From positions 1 through 26,809 of IMG/VR virus record IMGVR_UViG_3300048672_000862: DNA of 26,809 nt. One strand, given 5' to 3'. How positions within the stretch are numbered: position 1 is the stretch's first letter; the number at the start of each line of letters is the position of its first letter. Source of the stretch: a virus. The position numbers and the translations under genes were made by a program. Shown piece by piece: positions 1 through 23,799 of this stretch. The notes beneath the pieces were generated by a model, which was given only the letters and a program-made list of their open reading frames with translations, was not told where the DNA came from and made no database searches.

Positions 1-863
1 GCCAACGCCAACAAGTCAGATAAGATTTCTGAGTCAATTTCTTGAACGATTTCAGCTGAAACAACTTGTGACAATTCAGATTCAAGATCCATATTGTGTT
101 GTTTCTTAGCGTCTTGCATAGCTTCAATAGTCCAACCAGCTTGCAATTTACGAGTATCAGCTTCAACAGCTTGTGAAATAACTTCCAACTTCATTGTACG
201 GCCACCTGAGCCTTCGATGAAGCTACCGCCACCACCATACAAACGACCAGCATATGATTTACCGATAGCATCTGGACCAAATGGACCAAAGTTTGTGGTA
301 TCGTATGAAGGCAAGCTTGAAGGCCAACCACCGCGTGAAGCAGCAGATTGAATGTCAGCTTCATCAGCAGCAGCATTGGTAATACCAGATGCGCCAGCAG
401 GTTGAGCTAATGGAGTACCAACTACAGAACCAGCAGCACCAGAATAAAACTGACGAAGAACTGGATCGTTACCGAAAGCTTCTTGACCAGCAGTAATGCT
501 ACCAAAGTTGCCTGTTGGGTTGTCGGTCCATGGGTTGCCAGCGGTACCTGCACCTGGAGCGGTAACAGATTCGCCATAGCGGTAACGCATAGTGTAGACC
601 AAGTCAACTGGGCCTTGCATAGGTTGTACGCCGACTAATTCAGTAGCAATTGTGCCGGGTATGATACGACGTATCATTGGGATTAAAATTTTTCTGAATC
701 CAGCGATATCGGCGGTATTTACTGCGCCAGCAGCTGCGGTTTCAGTTAACAAGTGGTTTTTTTGGTTTTCCAACAAAGTGCCAACCAATTTGGTCTTTGA
801 AGGATCTAACCCGTCAAGCAGAGTATCTTTTACTGCTGCCCAATTTTCAAAAAGTTCTTTCAT
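1..863 (-). CDS. 23: Major capsid protein, gp23-like (C-terminal part missing at window edge)
   Basis: The minus-strand frame is open from an ATG at 863-861 to the left edge; about 287 residues are visible, against 521 in T4 gp23. The start is preceded by a strong AAAGGAG ribosome-binding site. After an N-terminal pro-region comes the gp23-type core, with IPMIRRIIPGTIATELVGVQ followed by PMQGP near residues 60-90, and later the IEGSGGRTMKLEV and KLQAGWTIEAMQD segments. In T4 gp23 the gp21 protease removes an N-terminal delta domain at an (L/I)-x-E site. The matching site here is L39-T40-E41 before T42. The gene is the last of the head block (20-67-21-22-23), in T4 order. No TATAAATA lies at the usual distance upstream, so it may depend on read-through from gp22 or on the TATAAT-like box near 911-921. 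Confidence 0.95.
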   Translation of the reverse strand, partial: MKELFENWAAVKDTLLDGLDPSKTKLVGTLLENQKNHLLTETAAAGAVNTADIAGFRKILIPMIRRIIPGTIATELVGVQPMQGPVDLVYTMRYRYGESVTAPGAGTAGNPWTDNPTGNFGSITAGQEAFGNDPVLRQFYSGAAGSVVGTPLAQPAGASGITNAAADEADIQSAASRGGWPSSLPSYDTTNFGPFGPDAIGKSYAGRLYGGGGSFIEGSGGRTMKLEVISQAVEADTRKLQAGWTIEAMQDAKKQHNMDLESELSQVVSAEIVQEIDSEILSDLLAL

Positions 864-912: not shown

Positions 913-1815
913 TTATACAATGCCTGCAACGGCACGCAAAAAGCTTAAATCAACATCAGCCTGAGTTTTAACTTTCACGCTTTCTGTCAATGATTCTTCA
1001 ACGTTACCGCTTTTAGAAATACCAGTTACCACTGGAGCAGTAGTTTCAGATTCTTTTAGTACCTTAGTTACTACAGGTACAGTTGTATCTTTTAGCACTC
1101 TACTAACGTATGTAGAATATGCTTCTTCTAACAATGGGGTATCTACATTTTTCAATATAGCTTCCATTACTTCTTTGGTTTTGCCAGACAATGGTGCTAA
1201 CACCTTTTCTAACTTAATCTTACGAGCAAGAGCGGCTGATTTGCGTTCTGATTCAATCAGAGCAGCGGTTGTATCTTGCAATTGTTGTTCGGCTTCTGAT
1301 AATTTTGCTTCGAGTGAATTATCACCAGCATAGTTTTGTTTGAATTCAGCAACGAACGCTTCAAAAATATTGCGTCCAAATTCATTACGTTTAACTAACT
1401 GAATGTCTTCACGCAATTCGTTCAATTCGGCAGTTAAGCGCACTTCTAAGAATGCATCTAATTTTTCAACCAGTTTAGCCAAATCCGAAGTTAATGTATC
1501 TGCCATCGATTGTTCAGCTTCTACTAATTTTTCAGCATATTCTGCTTCTAAGTCCCGAAAGCGCTCAATATCTTCACGCAATTCAGACATTTCCACTGTC
1601 AAAGCTTCAGTAATCTTTACATCAAGTACATTGATCAAAGTTTCACGCTCAGCAATCCACTGTTCATTCAACTCTGCAGTAACTTGAGCAGTTGCATCAC
1701 TCTTAGCTTGTGCCATCGCTTCATCCAACTTTGTGGTGAAAGCAGCTTCCAATTCTGTTTTGGTGCTTTCGGTTAGGATATCAGTCGATAACAACTTATT
1801 CAATAATTCTTTCAT
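913..1815 (-). CDS. 22: Prohead core scaffolding protein, gp22-like
   Basis: This 300-residue protein lies between the protease and the major capsid gene, where T4 has gp22 (269 residues). It is almost entirely charged helix, rich in Glu, Lys, Ala and Leu with very few prolines, as expected for a coiled-coil scaffold that fills the prohead and is later destroyed. The N-terminus MKELLNKLLSTDILTE contains an L-T-E motif (residues 14-16) of the type cut by T4 gp21, and similar (L/I)-x-E sites recur in the chain. The start has a GGAG ribosome-binding site and a perfect TATAAATA late promoter 33 bases upstream. Only 49 bases separate it from gp23. The assignment rests on position and composition more than on conserved residues. 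Confidence 0.88.
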   Translation of the reverse strand: MKELLNKLLSTDILTESTKTELEAAFTTKLDEAMAQAKSDATAQVTAELNEQWIAERETLINVLDVKITEALTVEMSELREDIERFRDLEAEYAEKLVEAEQSMADTLTSDLAKLVEKLDAFLEVRLTAELNELREDIQLVKRNEFGRNIFEAFVAEFKQNYAGDNSLEAKLSEAEQQLQDTTAALIESERKSAALARKIKLEKVLAPLSGKTKEVMEAILKNVDTPLLEEAYSTYVSRVLKDTTVPVVTKVLKESETTAPVVTGISKSGNVEESLTESVKVKTQADVDLSFLRAVAGIV

Positions 1816-1925: not shown

Positions 1926-2573
1926 TTATTTTGATTTTTGAAAAATGTCCGTTGCCAACCATTTCAAAATTTCCTGTTTGAAGTACCGTTGAGCGTCCAC
2001 GTCGTTGTGTACGTGTTCTGCTAATGTCAGGATTTTATTTGAATTACTGCTCATTTGCAAAGACTCGTATACGGATCCAGGATAAGCATTTTGTGCAGAT
2101 GGCTGAGCAACTATATCAACTGTAATAAACTGAAAGCCGGAAACAGCCCCAGTTGACTCATGTACGTTGCCAGCTCCACGACTAGATACACCAAGCCGAA
2201 CCTTATTATCAATAAGAGCTTTGGCTATGTTGCCCATTGGAGTTCCTTCAATTATTTTAGCTTTGCCACAAGCATTTTGTCCTTGCATCCATAGCTCGGT
2301 GATTACATGTGATACTCTATCTAAATTTATGGAAAGTGACGTAGGATGATCAAGCTCTCCCATTATCCCATTACCTTCAGTGATTCTAATTCTAGCATCA
2401 TTGACTGCAGATGAAATTTCGTGTAGTGGATAATTACGACCATTCCGATTTTTAATATCAGCTTGCATCATAATACCATTTAACCATAAACTTTTTCCAT
2501 CATTAGAAGACTCGGTAATCAAATTACATTCATTTGGTAACAGCTCCTCTACTAATAATTTAGCGTGTGACAT
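1926..2573 (-). CDS. 21: Prohead maturation protease, gp21-like
   Basis: This 215-residue protein matches T4 gp21 (212 residues) in length and position. T4 gp21 is a serine protease with a herpesvirus-assemblin-like fold, and it processes scaffold, capsid and internal proteins at (L/I)-x-E sites. Visible motifs are the N-terminal NGIMMQADIKNRNGRNYP segment, GELDHP with the likely catalytic His76, and the LGVSSRG segment with the likely nucleophile Ser130 or Ser131, followed by DIVAQPSAQNA near residues 153-163. An AGGA ribosome-binding site and a perfect TATAAATA at 2599-2606 precede the ATG. A terminator separates it from the upstream portal/gp67 pair, so it is transcribed separately. Its substrates probably include gp23, gp22 and the two proteins with (L/I)-x-E11 leaders found elsewhere in this window. 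Confidence 0.93.
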   Translation of the reverse strand: MSHAKLLVEELLPNECNLITESSNDGKSLWLNGIMMQADIKNRNGRNYPLHEISSAVNDARIRITEGNGIMGELDHPTSLSINLDRVSHVITELWMQGQNACGKAKIIEGTPMGNIAKALIDNKVRLGVSSRGAGNVHESTGAVSGFQFITVDIVAQPSAQNAYPGSVYESLQMSSNSNKILTLAEHVHNDVDAQRYFKQEILKWLATDIFQKSK

Positions 2574-4914: not shown

Positions 4915-7062
4915 TTATCCTCTGATGTTGGCTGCGGCGACTGGAATCTCTACGGTAGCGGGATATAGTGATCCGTTTGTTTGTAGTGATCCAAAAATCT
5001 GACCTGACGCATCTCCGCCCCACGCATACATGGAATTCATATTCGGCATTATATCCTTTGCTGTCACAAAAACATACGTCCGATCATTAGGGTCAGTACC
5101 AAACCAACCAATATCAACTACCACATCAGGCTCTCTTGGTTGAGGTAAAAACGCATGGATGCCTGTGTGAGTCCCTTGTTGACTCGGATCGTATCCGGTG
5201 TAGTACAAGAATCTATTGTGGCGCTGTATCCATGATGTACATATCCATCCATCATCACCAGACCCTGACATTCCATCGGAAAATAATTTGGTGGGAACAC
5301 TAGTTGATGTCATAATCAAAGTAGGAGTAGCTTTATCAGCTGATGTATTACCACCCAACGTCCAATTTGCCCCACATCCCCAAGCATATATTTCATTAGC
5401 ATTAGTTAATACTTGTATTATGTGTTGCTCTCCTCCAAACATAGCCACTTGCTTTATGTTTTTAAATGCTGCTATTAATGTTGGATTGCTAGAATCCGGA
5501 CCACCAACTTGATAGGGAATCTTTATAGACTCGTTGCTTCCGTTATCATCCTTGAGTGCATCGAAATTACCATTTCCAATTTGTCCATACTTATTACCAC
5601 CGCAAGTCCACAAAGAAGTCTCACCATTTGCTTTTTTCCTCAATATACATAACGTCCGAGAATGAATTTGGAGGCCTGTGCTACTAGCATTTCTTGATGA
5701 TCCAGCGGTATGAGCACTAACTATAATACCCGCACCACCTCCAACAGTTGAAGAATCCCCACCCCATCTACCGGAATTTGTAGCATTGGTAACACAAGTA
5801 AACGTATGCACGTTGTTTATGTGATCTAACCCTAGCTGACCCCCATCGCCGTGTGGTGCTAATGCATGAGTAGATCCAATTGGATGACCTTCGCCATTCC
5901 AGCCAGCCATCCATATTGAATCATCAGCTCTTTGAGCTATTTTTGCTCCAAATTGGCCACCTATATTAAAAAATCTAACAACCGGAGACCCTGTGCTAAA
6001 TGTAGTAATTTCAGTGAATGCTGGGATCCCTGCTGTGCGAACGCCAGTACCCGGTGCAGGATCTGTTATTGCGCCAGCTCCCAATCCTAATTGACCATAC
6101 CCATTGAAACCACACCCCCAGATTTTATCATCCTCGGTTTGAATAAACATAGTCCTCGCACTAGATGAATATTGACAATTTGATGGATGATCAAATACAC
6201 GTCTTACCCCAGTTTTTACTAATATGGGCTGTAAAATTGGTTGGAATAGTGTAGTTCCACTAAGAGCTACATATGGATCCCCCACTGTTCCTGTTCCAGT
6301 AGCTGCTCCCAACAAGCCGTGTGCCCCATCTCCCCAGGTAAACAAGTTACCTTGTTCATCGAGTGCCCACGCGCACTGTTCGCTAACGCAGTCAAAATCT
6401 TTTATTCGATACAATGTGGGGACTAACACTCTATGCCAGAAGTTAGCAACTCCACATCCAGTTATATTCTCAATTCCGATTTGAGTCTTTACCCTACCTG
6501 ATACCGTAGATATCGGCATCGCAGGACCAGGTGATGTGTACGGCTCGTATAGTAAGATATCAATAGTTGAATGAGCTGCGTATAGCTTTCCATCACACAA
6601 CACAAATATTGATCTACTGGTTCCTTTGGAAATCTTATCAATTTTGGGCCAATATCCAGCAGTTTCCAATATTAATTGGTGAGTAAAGCTAGTAGTAGCT
6701 AGAGTTCCACTATTCGTACGAGTAATAGGCGACGTGCTCATCGATGGAGCACCAGTAAAAACCGGAGATTGTATGGGAGCTAGTGTTGGGAAATCCGCCG
6801 CGACTAAATTTACATATCCGTGCTGACCGTTTACTGTTATTACTCCATCCACTATATCACTAGCTTTTAATACAACATCTCCGGGTTTTCCATTAACAGT
6901 TTTAACCCCATATCCTGCTGTTTTAATGAGAACTATATCATCTTTTATGGTAGTATCAACTCCAGCCAACACCGCAAGTTGGTCTCTAAGTAATTTAAAA
7001 TTATTGTCCATCTCTGTATTAGTGAGAGGAAGACCTTTTGTTTCGCGTAATGTTAATATCAT
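4915..7062 (-). CDS. Tail-fibre-like protein with RCC1-type beta-propeller
   Basis: A 715-residue protein of two parts. The N-terminal 130 residues are fibre-like: LPLTNTEMDNNFKLL at 11-25, two VNG-type linkers (VKTVNGKPGDVVL near 53-65, ITVNGQHGYVNL near 75-86), and an APIQSPVFTGAP-type segment at 95-106. The rest carries RCC1-like repeats, where an L/I-x-x-W/C-G core is followed by a G-Q-L/I-G turn: LFTWGDGAHGLLG (240-252), IWGCGFNGYGQLG (314-326), IWMAGWNG (383-390) with GGQLG (407-411), LWTCGGNKYGQIG (484-496), IYAWGCGANWTLG (558-570) and MYAWGGDASGQI (678-689). RCC1 repeats form seven-bladed propellers that bind other molecules. Following gp6 in a baseplate block suggests a virion-attached receptor-binding or adhesion protein; the binding role is inferred. 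It has its own near-consensus late promoter. Confidence 0.75.
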   Translation of the reverse strand: MILTLRETKGLPLTNTEMDNNFKLLRDQLAVLAGVDTTIKDDIVLIKTAGYGVKTVNGKPGDVVLKASDIVDGVITVNGQHGYVNLVAADFPTLAPIQSPVFTGAPSMSTSPITRTNSGTLATTSFTHQLILETAGYWPKIDKISKGTSRSIFVLCDGKLYAAHSTIDILLYEPYTSPGPAMPISTVSGRVKTQIGIENITGCGVANFWHRVLVPTLYRIKDFDCVSEQCAWALDEQGNLFTWGDGAHGLLGAATGTGTVGDPYVALSGTTLFQPILQPILVKTGVRRVFDHPSNCQYSSSARTMFIQTEDDKIWGCGFNGYGQLGLGAGAITDPAPGTGVRTAGIPAFTEITTFSTGSPVVRFFNIGGQFGAKIAQRADDSIWMAGWNGEGHPIGSTHALAPHGDGGQLGLDHINNVHTFTCVTNATNSGRWGGDSSTVGGGAGIIVSAHTAGSSRNASSTGLQIHSRTLCILRKKANGETSLWTCGGNKYGQIGNGNFDALKDDNGSNESIKIPYQVGGPDSSNPTLIAAFKNIKQVAMFGGEQHIIQVLTNANEIYAWGCGANWTLGGNTSADKATPTLIMTSTSVPTKLFSDGMSGSGDDGWICTSWIQRHNRFLYYTGYDPSQQGTHTGIHAFLPQPREPDVVVDIGWFGTDPNDRTYVFVTAKDIMPNMNSMYAWGGDASGQIFGSLQTNGSLYPATVEIPVAAANIRG

Positions 7063-11420: not shown

Positions 11421-12131
11421 ATGTACTACGTATATCACCTAATAGACGCATCAACGAATCTCCCATTTTACGTAGGCAAGGGTCGTAAGCATCGTAATCA
11501 TCGTGGCATAGCTCATCTATATGACGCTAAGCGAGACCCACAACTACAGGAAAACTCCCTAAAGTGTAATAAAATAAACAAACTACTATCGCTGAATATA
11601 GATATTATTATCACCAATGTGGCTGAGTTTGATAATGAGGAAGACGCTCTACTATACGAAGCAGCTGACATTGCAAAATTCGGTAAGCTATGCGACAATA
11701 CAGGAATTCTCACGAATATATTAGATGGGGGAACTACTCCACCAAAACAACCACAAAAGTTTGTATATTGCTTCAATATGGTAGGGGAATTGTTGCACAC
11801 ATTCCGTAGTACTCAGGAGGCATCTACTATACTGGGAGTTACTCCATCTGTCATCCAAAATTGTTGTGCGGGAAGGGTTCACACCAGTAAGGGATATGCT
11901 ATGTTTTACTATCCCAATCCGACCCAACCGGAAGTAGCCTATCGATTTGCTGATCGTAAGACCAGACATCAAGTTACCTACCAAATGGACAACGATCACC
12001 AGATAATCCGCCAATTTAGCTCTATGAAAGAAGCTGCTGCTTCTGTGGGGTCGGACTCCAGATCCATATCCAGAGCTATATCCAATAACTTTCGCCATAA
12101 GTCGTATTACTGGGCATTATCTCCTCCATAA
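11421..12131 (+). CDS. GIY-YIG homing endonuclease with two NUMOD1-like DNA-binding repeats
   Basis: The first 100 residues are a GIY-YIG nuclease domain: YYVYHL at 2-7, FYVGKGRKHR at 16-25 (the YIG-type motif plus basic residues) and a likely metal-binding Glu80 in ALLYEAADIAKFG. Two related DNA-binding modules follow, each beginning with a short strand and ending in a helix-turn-helix: VYCFNMVGELLHTFRSTQEA (about 114-133, then SVIQNCCAGR) and TYQMDNDHQIIRQFSSMKEA (about 184-203, then SRSISRAISNN). Such proteins cut alleles lacking the gene and spread by repair. The gene lies on the plus strand inside a minus-strand baseplate block and overlaps the convergent gp5 gene by 15 bases. A GAGG ribosome-binding site and GATAAATA site precede it. 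It appears intact and free-standing. Confidence 0.88.
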   Translation: MYYVYHLIDASTNLPFYVGKGRKHRNHRGIAHLYDAKRDPQLQENSLKCNKINKLLSLNIDIIITNVAEFDNEEDALLYEAADIAKFGKLCDNTGILTNILDGGTTPPKQPQKFVYCFNMVGELLHTFRSTQEASTILGVTPSVIQNCCAGRVHTSKGYAMFYYPNPTQPEVAYRFADRKTRHQVTYQMDNDHQIIRQFSSMKEAAASVGSDSRSISRAISNNFRHKSYYWALSPP

Positions 12132-16871: not shown

Positions 16872-17243
16872 TTACCGCTTGGTTAATATCTGGGAGTTTA
16901 GTCTACTCTTAGTAGGGAGCGTTAACACCAATCCAGATAAGAACTCCCGATCGACGTCTATGATCCCATTATATTGTAATACTACCCACATCAATGTAGC
17001 ACTACCATACAAATCATACGCAAGTAGCCAGGGCTTTTTTTCGTATTTAGCTCCAATTGAGATGGTAAAATCCGTTACATCTGTGCTTAATATCGATCCA
17101 TCCCAATATCCAATCCACGGGCCTTTTTGTTCAGTATTCCCGCCATATTGGTATCGCCCTGTAATATCTGGATTTCTCTTTTGGGTGGATCTCAGATTAG
17201 GTGTTGGAGCTCGAGATATTGGTATACTAAACGTGTTGATCAT
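16872..17243 (-). CDS. 53: Baseplate wedge protein, gp53-like
   Basis: A 123-residue protein. The C-terminal half, PWLLAYDLYGSATLMWVVLQ followed by YNGIIDVDREFLSGLVLTLP, is the pattern of gp53-type and LysM-like wedge proteins, where a short helix is followed by a W-x-x-L-x-x-N core and a D-x-x-x-x-x-L-x-P turn. T4 gp53 (196 residues) attaches to the baseplate rim during wedge assembly. This protein is shorter. It heads the gp53, hub, gp5 block, which fits T4-like gene order. A CATAAATA site lies 30 bases upstream, back to back with the plus-strand promoter of the next gene. A general LysM tail protein is the main alternative. Confidence 0.72.
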   Translation of the reverse strand: MINTFSIPISRAPTPNLRSTQKRNPDITGRYQYGGNTEQKGPWIGYWDGSILSTDVTDFTISIGAKYEKKPWLLAYDLYGSATLMWVVLQYNGIIDVDREFLSGLVLTLPTKSRLNSQILTKR

Positions 17244-17265: not shown

Positions 17266-17273
17266 TATTTATG
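17266..17273 (-). promoter_or_regulatory. Late-promoter-like site of gp53
   Basis: CATAAATA on the minus strand (seven of eight consensus bases), 30 bases upstream of the gp53 ATG. It is divergent from the TATAAATA at 17284, with ten bases between the two octamers. Confidence 0.65.
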
Positions 17274-17283
17274 TTTGTGGTAT

Positions 17284-17291
17284 TATAAATA
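17284..17291 (+). promoter_or_regulatory. T4-type late promoter of ART-like gene
   Basis: Perfect TATAAATA on the plus strand, 34 bases upstream of the ATG at 17318, so this gene is expected to be expressed late with the virion genes. Confidence 0.85.
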
Positions 17292-17317: not shown

Positions 17318-17953
17318 ATGAAATTGTCTGAACTTATCACCATAACAGAAATGATAAATGATAAGCATTATCTATACCATGCGGCTACTGCTCAAATCGC
17401 TCTTCAAATTATACAAAGCAAACACCTAAAAGGATTAACTCCATCCCGCATTCCAGTTCATGCTCAAGCAGGTGGAGTTAGTCTTACCAGAAATAATAGA
17501 TATGCTCATACTGGTTCCGATGATGCGGGCAGACGATCTGCTAAAGTAGGAGGAGAAACTATTGGAACTGATGTAGTGTTTGTATTCAATGCAGACGTGC
17601 TAAAACAGAGAAAACAAATCAATCCAGTAGCACAATCTATGAATAGACAACGCCCCGACCAAGTTGCCAAAGCTAGTGCACAAACGGAATATGAAGAATT
17701 TGCACTTGGTGATATTCCACTAGATCCTAAATTTGGGTATTTGGGGTTTTATATCAATAACCCACGATTAGATCACCAAATCGCATATCAATTAAAATCC
17801 GCTCCGGGATTCATGTATCGTTCGCCCGTTAATACCAATCGATTAGATGCAAAAGATGCTAGATTAGCGACTGCTAGAAAAGCACAACAAGCACAACAAG
17901 CACAACCAGCTGCTCCCGCAGGTGGGGCGTATGATTGGAAAAATTGGGATTAG
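17318..17953 (+). CDS. ADP-ribosyltransferase-like protein with candidate capsid-targeting leader
   Basis: A 211-residue protein not identified by any full-length match I recall. Its layout fits ADP-ribosyltransferase-type folds. YLYHAAT at 18-24 has a conserved-type His21, and an A-x-x-I-I-x-S-K-H-L-K-G helix follows. GVSLTRNNRYAH at 53-64 resembles the second-strand motif, and EYEEFALGDIPL at 124-135 supplies a candidate catalytic Glu (E126 or E127). The N-terminus MKLSELITITEM ends in I9-T10-E11, the (L/I)-x-E form cut by T4 gp21 and placed like the leader of T4 internal proteins. T4 itself packs the ADP-ribosyltransferase Alt in its head. The last 30 residues are Ala/Gln/Pro-rich. The gene is a lone plus-strand insert among minus-strand baseplate genes, with its own late promoter and a weak ribosome-binding site. 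The function is inferred, not shown. Confidence 0.6.
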   Translation: MKLSELITITEMINDKHYLYHAATAQIALQIIQSKHLKGLTPSRIPVHAQAGGVSLTRNNRYAHTGSDDAGRRSAKVGGETIGTDVVFVFNADVLKQRKQINPVAQSMNRQRPDQVAKASAQTEYEEFALGDIPLDPKFGYLGFYINNPRLDHQIAYQLKSAPGFMYRSPVNTNRLDAKDARLATARKAQQAQQAQPAAPAGGAYDWKNWD

Positions 17954-17971: not shown

Positions 17972-19119
17972 TTAATATCCTTTTAGTGTGCCAGACTTAT
18001 ATAAACTCAGATTAAATGCGGACAATTCATCCGGTGAATGAGATTCCAATACAGAAACAGACACAGATAAGATAATAGGAAAATTCCCCAATACCGCTCC
18101 AGATTTCGGATCTATAATAGGAATGTAATCTGTAGCATCTTGATAATCGATATCTAAATTCGTTAATACGACCGGAACGCGGTTGATGTTATAATCGCCA
18201 TATTTCCGGTCGTTGTTAATCGAGCTGCTATAGGCATAAAGATACAAAAGTTCGGGCGGAGCTCCCAACAAATTGACTCCGGAGCTATCTGGTGTGGAGA
18301 GCATTGAATTGTCCCCCGTATATTCTCTTACAGATCCCGCTTCACCTTTGCCTTCACTAGATTCGCCGCTTGGGGTTTGGCCAAAATAAGGCATTCTCCA
18401 CGCCCGCAAAATTTGCAATTGCTTTGCGTTGTTATATGCGTCTCGGGAATTGCGAGATATGAACTTAGCTGATATTGACCAAGTTCTTGATGGTGTATAT
18501 TTGTATACTTGAATTCCACCTGGGGAGTGTATTGGTTGATTTGGAGTATATTCAACTCCTCCGGTTTCATGTACTGATGATGGTGAAGTAAGAAACACTA
18601 CTGATTGTATTCCACCAGGCGCTGCATTTGCTAGCCCAACCGCAGATACTAATCGCACTCTAAAACTCTTATCAGGATCTTCAACTGGCTTTGCAGCTGG
18701 TTTCGTGCTCGGAATAGATGCTGCTTGATTGCGAGCTCCCAAACTAGGAATCCTATTAGATGCTAAAGGAACGGGACCTTGACTGCTTAATGGCTTATAA
18801 GCAACTGGGGCTGGTTCGGGAGTTATTGGGTACGTGTGGATACTACTATCTGGTGCTATAGTAGTTTTGGGAGACGGTTGTGTCTCAACTGGTGGTACAA
18901 CCTTAGGAGGCTCGGTAGAACCGAATAGGCCAGAGAAGAACCCAGGCTTAGCATCTTCAGCATCTTCAGCCGCTAATCTAGCTCGCGTTGCTGCCTCTGT
19001 TCTTTTGCATACCTCTCCTGGAATGCTGCTTCATTTTTAAAATGCTCGGCGGGAGTATATGCATTTCCGAATATGTCCCGATATAACCCATCTGCATCTG
19101 GACCGGCTTTTACGCTCAT
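17972..19119 (-). CDS. Tail-tube cap/initiator-like protein (gp48/gp54 type), split by a -1 frame change
   Basis: Coding starts at an ATG (19119) placed 32 bases after a perfect TATAAATA. The first frame gives 48 residues ending at a TAG (18975-18973). A second frame, one base back, is open from 19030 to 17972 and has no ATG upstream of its conserved part; its first possible start is a TTG at 18742. Joined by a -1 shift, the product is about 382 residues, close to T4 gp48 (364) and gp54 (320). The second frame has a Pro-rich linker, then YTPSRTWSISAKFISRNSRD with LQILRAWRMPYFG, and ends in PVVLTNLDIDYQDATDYIPI, ILSVSVSVLESHS and the closing strand. These resemble tube-cap proteins that start the tail tube on the baseplate. 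Whether the frame break is programmed, a mutation or a sequencing error is open. Confidence 0.6.
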
Positions 19120-19207: not shown

Positions 19208-19807
19208 ATGGCTAGTGTAAAAACACCAAAAAACAAACCAACGATACAACACAACAATAAAACTATTTACCTCAATAATAAAGAATTAATGGATGCTGTG
19301 ATTGAATCATTCGAACAAGATAAAATGACTGACAAATTAGCCAAGATGTTGATGTTGTTGTGTGAGCGATACGCATCAAGATCTAATTTTTCGGGATATA
19401 CTTACATTTTGGATATGCAAGCGTATGCACTATTGAGTTTATGTAAGACTTGGAGGGGATTTGACCCAAATAAAGGGTCAAATCCATTTGCGTACTATAC
19501 ACAAAGTATCTATCATTCATTCCTCCAATATCTTTCAAATGAGAAAAAGCACCGACAAATCCGCGACAAACTAATTATGGAACAGGGATTGAATCCATCG
19601 CAGGCTTTTTGTGATGAGATGGCAGATGACTTACATATAGTTGAAGATGAGCAAGATTTTTCGTATGTGACTCACACCGCAAAACAATTGCAGCAAAATC
19701 AAAGAGTAGAGGATAAAGCTATAGATAGGTGTGATTTGGGATGGGAAATCGAATCCGATCCGGAGGTGGATGAGCCATCGGAGACTGTAGAAATTACCGA
19801 AGATTAA
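19208..19807 (+). CDS. 55: Late-transcription sigma factor, gp55-like
   Basis: A 199-residue protein matching T4 gp55 (185 residues), the small sigma-like factor that directs host RNA polymerase to TATAAATA late promoters with the sliding clamp. The core at about residues 45-120 contains MLLCERYASRSNFSGYTYIL and QAYALLSLCKTWRGFDPNKG leading to NPFAYYTQSIYHSFLQYLS, related to sigma region 2. The C-terminus is acidic. T4 gp55 ends in a short hydrophobic clamp-binding tail; here the end (VEITED) does not show an obvious one. An AGGAT ribosome-binding site precedes the second of two close ATGs. The upstream 90 bases are shared with the divergent tube-cap gene, and no clear sigma70 promoter was identified there. 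Confidence 0.93.
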   Translation: MASVKTPKNKPTIQHNNKTIYLNNKELMDAVIESFEQDKMTDKLAKMLMLLCERYASRSNFSGYTYILDMQAYALLSLCKTWRGFDPNKGSNPFAYYTQSIYHSFLQYLSNEKKHRQIRDKLIMEQGLNPSQAFCDEMADDLHIVEDEQDFSYVTHTAKQLQQNQRVEDKAIDRCDLGWEIESDPEVDEPSETVEITED

Positions 19808-23499: not shown

Positions 23500-23799
23500 A
23501 TGACCAAAAGTTTTATTCAATATCTAATGGAGCAGAATCTGAGTGGGAGTAATAATGCGATTGGTGGGTTGATTGACAATGCCACCAAAGTATTATCCAC
23601 AACTAGCAATTTGCCTAATGATATAAAAAAAGCAGCATTGCGAGCAGTGTCGTCGTTATCGGATAACTTAGCTAGTTGTGTCGATCAAGCATCCGCGATA
23701 CAATATTTACAAAAGCTGATTAATCCGAATATCACCGTGCCAGAAGCTAGAATGATACTAGACGCATTTGCCTCATATACAAACGATTCAGGAGAATAA
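23500..23799 (+). CDS. Small protein with candidate capsid-targeting leader
   Basis: A 99-residue protein of unknown family. I take the ATG at 23500 because it lies 31 bases after the late-promoter-like site; an in-frame ATG at 23446 sits inside the preceding gene. The N-terminus MTKSFIQYLMEQ has an amphipathic character and ends in L9-M10-E11, the (L/I)-x-E form cut by T4 gp21, as in the leader of T4 internal protein IPI (MKTYQEFIAE). The remaining 88 residues are soluble and mostly helical, with Ala, Ser, Asn and Asp common and no transmembrane segment. If packed and cut, it would be a small internal head protein injected with the DNA. No Shine-Dalgarno sequence is visible. It sits between a nuclease-like gene and the RuvC-like gene. 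Confidence 0.6.
   Translation: MTKSFIQYLMEQNLSGSNNAIGGLIDNATKVLSTTSNLPNDIKKAALRAVSSLSDNLASCVDQASAIQYLQKLINPNITVPEARMILDAFASYTNDSGE

What the first reader, a model, noticed from the sequence alone, without database searches (positions are those of the whole stretch)
17318..17953. Possible injected ADP-ribosyltransferase carrying a gp21-type capsid-targeting leader
Seen: ART-like motifs (YLYHAAT with His21, GVSLTRN, EYEEF with E126/E127) behind a leader ending I9-T10-E11, and a perfect late promoter. Known: T4 gp21 cuts after (L/I)-x-E; T4 internal proteins carry about ten-residue leaders of this kind; T4 Alt is an ADP-ribosyltransferase packed in the head and injected. Inference: this is a compact effector delivered with the DNA that modifies a host target. 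It is much shorter than Alt and has a different motif series, so it could be a new family of injected transferase.
Basis: partly seen in the sequence, partly recalled or inferred. Interest (0 to 1): 0.8.

Follow-up and report, generated by a model that had tools for sequence, protein, structure and literature searches.

The report
Packaged phage ADP-ribosyltransferase with capsid-targeting leader
A giant T4-like virus of bacteria carries a small enzyme of the ADP-ribosyltransferase kind behind a short tag that very probably loads it into the virus head for injection, and relatives of it, in rows of up to nine copies, occur unnamed in many other large phages.

Summary
Observation confirmed: ORF 17318-17953 (+), 211 aa, has leader MKLSELITITE, H21, S55-L-T-R58, E126-E127, and TATAAATA 26 bp upstream of the ATG. 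No Pfam, PHROGs, NCBIfam or PDB profile reports it, but a motif pattern search opened a family of over 40 unannotated phage proteins. H, S, R and E are invariant in 30 members at 18-30% identity to P0001. AlphaFold2 models put H on strand 1, S-T on strand 2 and E-E on strand 5; the leading PDB matches are all ADP-ribosyltransferase folds (Tpt1/KptA, DarT, PARP).

The leader holds up too. It ends in the same I/L-T-E as the probable cut sites of this phage's capsid protein, gp22 and gp21. All 12 family-bearing phages with a detectable gp21 protease have [LIV]-x-E just before the domain, 8 residues from the His in 11; 0 of 5 phages without one have it. In the nearest phage relative, unrelated proteins share the same MKL..L..E leader. 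One relative has a nine-gene tandem array.

Best reading: a head-packaged, injected transferase, working like T4 Alt by T4 IP-style targeting, but not an Alt member. Packaging, activity and target are unproven. Head-packaged phage transferases are a known theme; this family and its leader delivery are a new variant.

The parts
17284..17291 (+). late promoter -10 element TATAAATA of the transferase gene
   Evidence: exact match, 26 bp before the ATG; a divergent CATAAATA at 17266-17273 (-) precedes gp53
17318..17953 (+). P0001: leader plus single ART domain plus Ala/Gln-rich C-terminal tail, 211 aa
   Evidence: family alignment; AlphaFold2 model
17318..17350 (+). leader MKLSELITITE, predicted capsid-targeting sequence, cut after E11
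   Evidence: same ITE/LTE ending as gp23, gp22 and gp21 of this phage; same leader style on unrelated proteins of G001
17378..17380 (+). His21, strand 1, predicted NAD+-binding/catalytic
   Evidence: invariant in 30 members; on strand 18-23 of the model
17480..17491 (+). S55-L56-T57-R58 motif, strand 2
   Evidence: S and R invariant; strand 52-57
17690..17698 (+). Y125-E126-E127 of the ExEE motif, strand 5
   Evidence: E126 invariant, E127 at least 90%; strand 126-130
741..749 (-). probable cut site L-T-E| in the major capsid protein (HLLTE|TAAAGAV)
   Evidence: capsid protein by PHROGs
1768..1776 (-). L-T-E in the gp22-position scaffold protein (DILTE|STKTE)
   Evidence: name by gene position only
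1926..2573 (-). gp21-type prohead protease; its N-terminus holds NLITE, the ITE at 2511-2519
   Evidence: PF03420 E 7e-25 and PHROGs head maturation protease
19208..19807 (+). late transcription sigma factor (gp55-type)
   Evidence: phrog_234 E 1e-27

Best explanation
P0001 is a compact ADP-ribosyltransferase made late in infection. Its first 11 residues carry it into the prohead core; the gp21-type protease cuts after E11 and leaves an enzyme starting at Met12 among the packaged DNA. It is injected with the DNA at the next infection and moves ADP-ribose from NAD+ to a host macromolecule before phage genes are expressed, as T4 Alt does, but with its own H / S-x-T-R / ExEE active site. Shown here: ORF, promoter, family, invariant residues, predicted fold, and leader conserved in relatives and shared with unrelated proteins. 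Inferred: packaging, cleavage, injection, catalysis. Unknown: the target.
For: Invariant H, S, R, E across 30 members at 18-30% identity to P0001. Models: P0001 pLDDT 75, pTM 0.66; relative pLDDT 81, pTM 0.77. The leading PDB matches of both models (first 31 and first 20) are ART-fold proteins: Tpt1/KptA prob 1.00, DarT 0.98-1.00, PARPs, bacterial ART toxins, Arr-2. Weak Pfam matches of single members gather in ART families: Tox-ART-HYD1 0.0021, PARP 0.0087, ART-PolyVal 0.067, Tpt1 0.072. Leader: [LIV]-x-E in 12/12 phages with PF03420 and 0/5 without (Fisher 1.6e-4; strict [LI]-x-E ending at residue 7 or later 10/12 vs 0/5, p 0.0034); Glu exactly 8 residues before the His in 11, 10 in P0001. 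Same LTE/ITE as this phage's own probable cut sites. Eight proteins of G001, the nearest phage by portal (51%), carry MKL..L..E leaders, with P-loop kinase-like, HNH/NUMOD4 and GIY-YIG-like bodies. Alishewanella phage Slickus01 has four ART members and four other proteins with one leader. T4: gp21 cuts after L/I-x-E, 10 residues of IPIII suffice for packaging, Alt is ejected into the host (PMC9026906).
Against: No virion proteomics or enzyme assay for any member. PDB E-values are 0.004-0.06 at best and TM-scores mostly 0.3-0.5, so the fold rests on consistency of the hits. [LI]-x-E near an N-terminus is common by chance (30%). The 17 phages are not independent samples, and two members fit only loosely (VTE, or E at residue 5). 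Phages scored gp21-negative may hold a diverged protease, as phiKZ does. P0001 has no close relative in the collections and sits 2 residues off the usual spacing.
Confidence: 0.74

Rival explanations
1. The protein is an ADP-ribosyltransferase but is not packaged: it is made late and acts in the infected cell, like T4 ModA/ModB, and the N-terminal [LI]-x-E is coincidence or part of the fold.
For: 30% of neighbouring-type genes have [LI]-x-E near the N-terminus; the fixed 8-residue spacing could reflect a structural role; leaderless members exist (Dickeya JA11, Sen-NF).
Against: Leader presence follows the gp21 protease (12/12 vs 0/5), leader length and sequence differ between phages while the terminal x-E stays, and unrelated proteins share the leader in G001 and Slickus01.
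Confidence: 0.15
2. The enzyme acts on nucleic acid: a Tpt1/KptA-like RNA 2'-phosphate remover or a DarT-like DNA/RNA modifier, packaged or not.
For: The best PDB structure matches are Tpt1/KptA and DarT.
Against: No evident Tpt1 Arg-His pair (Y20-H21 instead) and an ExEE motif that Tpt1 lacks (known features recalled, compared); tandem diversified arrays fit arms-race effectors better than a repair enzyme. This does not exclude DarT-like chemistry.
Confidence: 0.2
3. The ART fold is used as a NAD+ hydrolase, or is catalytically dead and binds NAD+ or ADP-ribose derivatives to blunt NAD-based host immunity.
For: NADase forms of ARTs exist (PMC9503650); the nearest phage relative also has a leader-bearing nucleotidyltransferase-like protein whose motif suggests NAD synthesis (L065:5308-6093).
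Against: Strict invariance of H, S, R and E argues against a dead enzyme; the same survey found NADase-type ARTs under-represented in viruses.
Confidence: 0.1

Closest known systems
T4 Alt (head-packaged, injected mono-ADP-ribosyltransferase)
   Same: predicted ART made late, short N-terminal propeptide ending in the gp21 motif, predicted head packaging and injection
   Different: much shorter (211 aa); H / S-x-T-R / ExEE active site instead of the R-S-E class; no sequence match; no match to Alt among the structure hits shown
T4 internal proteins IPI-IPIII
   Same: about 10-residue leader ending [LI]-x-E shared by otherwise unrelated proteins; accessory and diversified; several per genome in relatives
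   Different: IPs are small inhibitors of GmrSD restriction enzymes (PMC12373910); this is a predicted enzyme
Tpt1/KptA RNA 2'-phosphotransferases and DarT DNA ADP-ribosyltransferases
   Same: nearest solved folds
   Different: different conserved residues; no sequence match to any such PDB chain
ART-PolyVal and other phage ARTs surveyed by Iyer et al. 2022 (PMC9503650)
   Same: phage ARTs predicted to be packaged and injected; frequent in jumbo myoviruses
   Different: those are linked to heads by fusion (MuF, portal, polyvalent proteins) or by gene neighbourhood; a stand-alone gp21-type leader is not mentioned in the passages read

Membership tests
ART superfamily | split beta-sheet ART fold | tested here: met
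   two AlphaFold2 models; top PDB matches all ART folds, prob up to 1.00, E 0.004-0.06
ART superfamily | conserved residues on strands 1, 2 and 5 | tested here: met
   H21, S55/R58 and E126 invariant and placed on or at the end of those strands
ART superfamily | NAD+-dependent ADP-ribosyl transfer | not testable with these tools
   needs a biochemical assay
H-Y-[EDQ] clade (PARP-like) | His on strand 1, Tyr on strand 2, E/D/Q on strand 5 | tested here: not met
   H and E present, but strand 2 has Ser in all 30 members
R-S-E clade (Alt, Mod, many toxins) | Arg on strand 1, Ser on strand 2, Glu on strand 5 | tested here: not met
   His, not Arg, on strand 1 in all 30 members
T4 Alt family | sequence relationship to Alt | tested here: not met
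   no tblastn match to any record of the phage collection at E <= 1 with the whole protein; two weak unrelated matches at E <= 10 with the core
Tpt1/KptA | Pfam PF01885 match | tested here: not met
   one member at E 0.07, below cut-off; P0001 none
capsid-targeted (CTS) cargo of gp21-type phages | about 10-residue N-terminal leader ending [LI]-x-E | tested here: met
   MKLSELITITE in P0001; 12/12 gp21-positive phages allowing V
capsid-targeted (CTS) cargo of gp21-type phages | gp21-type protease in the same phage | tested here: met
   window 1926-2573, PF03420 E 7e-25
capsid-targeted (CTS) cargo of gp21-type phages | leader shared by non-homologous proteins of the same phage kind | tested here: met
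   eight MKL..L..E proteins in G001
capsid-targeted (CTS) cargo of gp21-type phages | presence and cleavage in the virion | not testable with these tools
   needs mass spectrometry

The most novel reading that the evidence does not exclude
A widespread, unrecognised ART family with an H-S-E-type active site is a modular injected arsenal: large phages duplicate and diversify leader-bearing copies (nine in tandem in one contig), each tuned to a different host target or defence, as T4 IP1-3 each disable one GmrSD enzyme.
Probability: 0.35. Interest if true: 0.85.

Novelty: new variant of a known kind. Interest (0 to 1): 0.64.

Why it matters
It adds a compact, testable family to the few known enzymes that phages inject, and a sequence rule (gp21-type [LIV]-x-E about 8 residues before the first active-site residue) by which packaged effectors can be found in gp21-bearing phages, even on unrelated proteins. 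The tandem arrays suggest that ADP-ribosylation is a diversified first-strike weapon in some of these phages.

Tried and rejected
Pfam, PHROGs, NCBIfam, PDB sequence search and tblastn with P0001 itself: nothing useful (phrog_9040 at E 0.26 judged chance). Searching whole records of XacN1, RAS14 and two IMG/VR relatives with P0001: no match, so the gene is accessory and not syntenic. Profile search with an alignment including P0001 failed for lack of conserved blocks. XacN1 poly(ADP-ribose) polymerase (BBA65562.1) considered as a relative: longer, PARP-like C-terminus, no leader. Homing element considered because a GIY-YIG-like gene lies about 5 kb away: nothing in P0001 resembles an endonuclease. 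One malformed DNA pattern, one paper query and one bad ticket gave nothing.

Full report
What is there. The ORF at 17318-17953 (+) codes for 211 aa exactly as described. An exact TATAAATA lies 26 bp before the ATG; the window holds ten exact copies where 3.6 are expected, and the late sigma factor is encoded at 19208-19807. The gene stands alone on the + strand between gp53 (16872-17243, -) and a structural gene (17972-18742, -). The window is a 26.8-kb virus record of a T4-like phage; its portal is 46% identical to Xanthomonas phage XacN1 and Stenotrophomonas phage RAS14 and 51% to a 179-kb IMG/VR contig, G001.

Finding relatives. Library searches with P0001 gave nothing. A degenerate DNA pattern for GVSLTR[DN] ... 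ExEEF in IMG/VR gave three contigs, all with true relatives. L006 has three copies close together; L022 (the same contig as L008) has nine tandem copies and two further ones about 36 kb away. Wider searches brought in more contigs and, through a Dickeya phage member, 38 records of the phage collection, annotated 'hypothetical protein' where annotated. Together more than 40 distinct proteins were read. Bacillus phage SP-15 joined at E 2e-8 with the L008 member. P0001 matches single members at E 2e-8 and 2e-5 in pairwise comparison.

The domain. In 30 aligned members H21, S55, R58 and E126 are invariant, and L19, L95, P103 and E127 at least 90%. AlphaFold2 with this alignment gave pLDDT 75, pTM 0.66 for P0001 and 81, 0.77 for a relative; strands 1, 2 and 5 carry H, S-T and E-E. 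PDB matches are ART folds throughout the top of both lists: Tpt1/KptA, DarT, PARPs, bacterial ART toxins, Arr-2. E-values are modest (0.004 to 0.06 for the leading hits), so the weight lies in the consistency and in the residue placement. The best matches in the viral structure library include SP-15, a Dickeya JA11 protein and phage G proteins. The H / S-x-T-R / ExEE series fits neither the H-Y-[EDQ] nor the R-S-E clade described in PMC9503650.

The leader. T4 gp21 cuts after L/I-x-E, and ten residues of IPIII suffice to send a protein into the head (PMC9026906). In this window the capsid protein has HLLTE|TAAAG, the gp22-position protein DILTE, gp21 NLITE and P0001 TITE. Of 17 family-bearing phages tested, 12 (the window's, the others) have PF03420 and all 12 have [LIV]-x-E before the domain; five do not and none has it (Fisher 1.6e-4; strict definition 10/12 against 0/5, p 0.0034). 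The Glu is exactly 8 residues before the His in 11 of 12, with leaders from 5 to 16 residues; in P0001 the distance is 10. This spacing was noticed after the fact and could also reflect a constraint on the mature N-terminus. The phages are not independent, and the negative ones may hold diverged proteases with another motif, as in phiKZ (PMC9026906).

The leader is also a module. In G001, eight small proteins start MKLxx[LI]...E, among them a P-loop kinase-like protein (MKLNEITE|), an HNH/NUMOD4 protein (MKLEELME|) and a GIY-YIG-like protein (MKLKDLIPLTE|, weak Pfam match); a nucleotidyltransferase-like protein has MTKTFKQYLIE|. Slickus01 shows the same: four ART members and four other proteins with leaders of the form MKIDxLYESxLxE. 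A leader shared by otherwise unrelated proteins is what marks the T4 internal proteins.

How it most likely works. Late transcription, packaging by the leader, cut after E11, injection, ADP-ribosylation of a host molecule. The tandem, diverged copies (35-46% identity to one member) resemble IP1-3, each of which disables one GmrSD enzyme (PMC12373910), so an anti-defence or host-takeover role with several targets is plausible. The nine-copy array in L022 begins 34 bp after a TATAAATA, though four copies in that locus are not beyond chance.

Known or new. Packaged phage ARTs are an established theme: ARTs in over 40% of jumbo phages, about 44% of phage ARTs in contexts suggesting packaging (PMC9503650). 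I cannot exclude that some members were counted there. What appears new is the family outside Pfam/PHROGs/NCBIfam, its residue series, its leader-based delivery and its arrays.

Noticed in passing
23500-23799 (+): Small ORF MTKSFIQYLMEQNLSGSN... with a second leader style (FxQYLxE), matching MTKTFKQYLIE in G001; another candidate packaged protein.
   Followed up: partly
L065:5308-6093 (+), contig G001: Nucleotidyltransferase-like protein (CTP_transf_like, E 1e-5) with motif FVGRFQPFHKGH, suggesting an NMN adenylyltransferase, behind leader MTKTFKQYLIE: possible packaged NAD-synthesis enzyme.
   Followed up: partly
L064:4762-5130 and L064:11-562, contig G001: HNH/NUMOD4 and GIY-YIG-like nucleases carry the capsid-targeting-type leader, so nucleases may be injected too.
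   Followed up: no
L013 (Alishewanella phage Slickus01) 3835-9432: Cluster of eight genes with one shared leader style, four of them ART members and four others: a possible cargo island.
   Followed up: partly
4915-7062 (-): RCC1-repeat protein of 715 aa between portal and baseplate genes, a beta-propeller of eukaryotic type, with weak tail-fibre similarity.
   Followed up: no
L016 (Pseudomonas phage Lu11) 2881-6990: Three ART paralogs share an N-terminus MKIQLA[VL]A without the Glu, in a phage without detectable PF03420; possibly a leader for a different protease.
   Followed up: no
11421-12131 (+): GIY-YIG-like homing endonuclease gene inserted between gp25 and the baseplate hub gene, overlapping the latter's end.
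   Followed up: no
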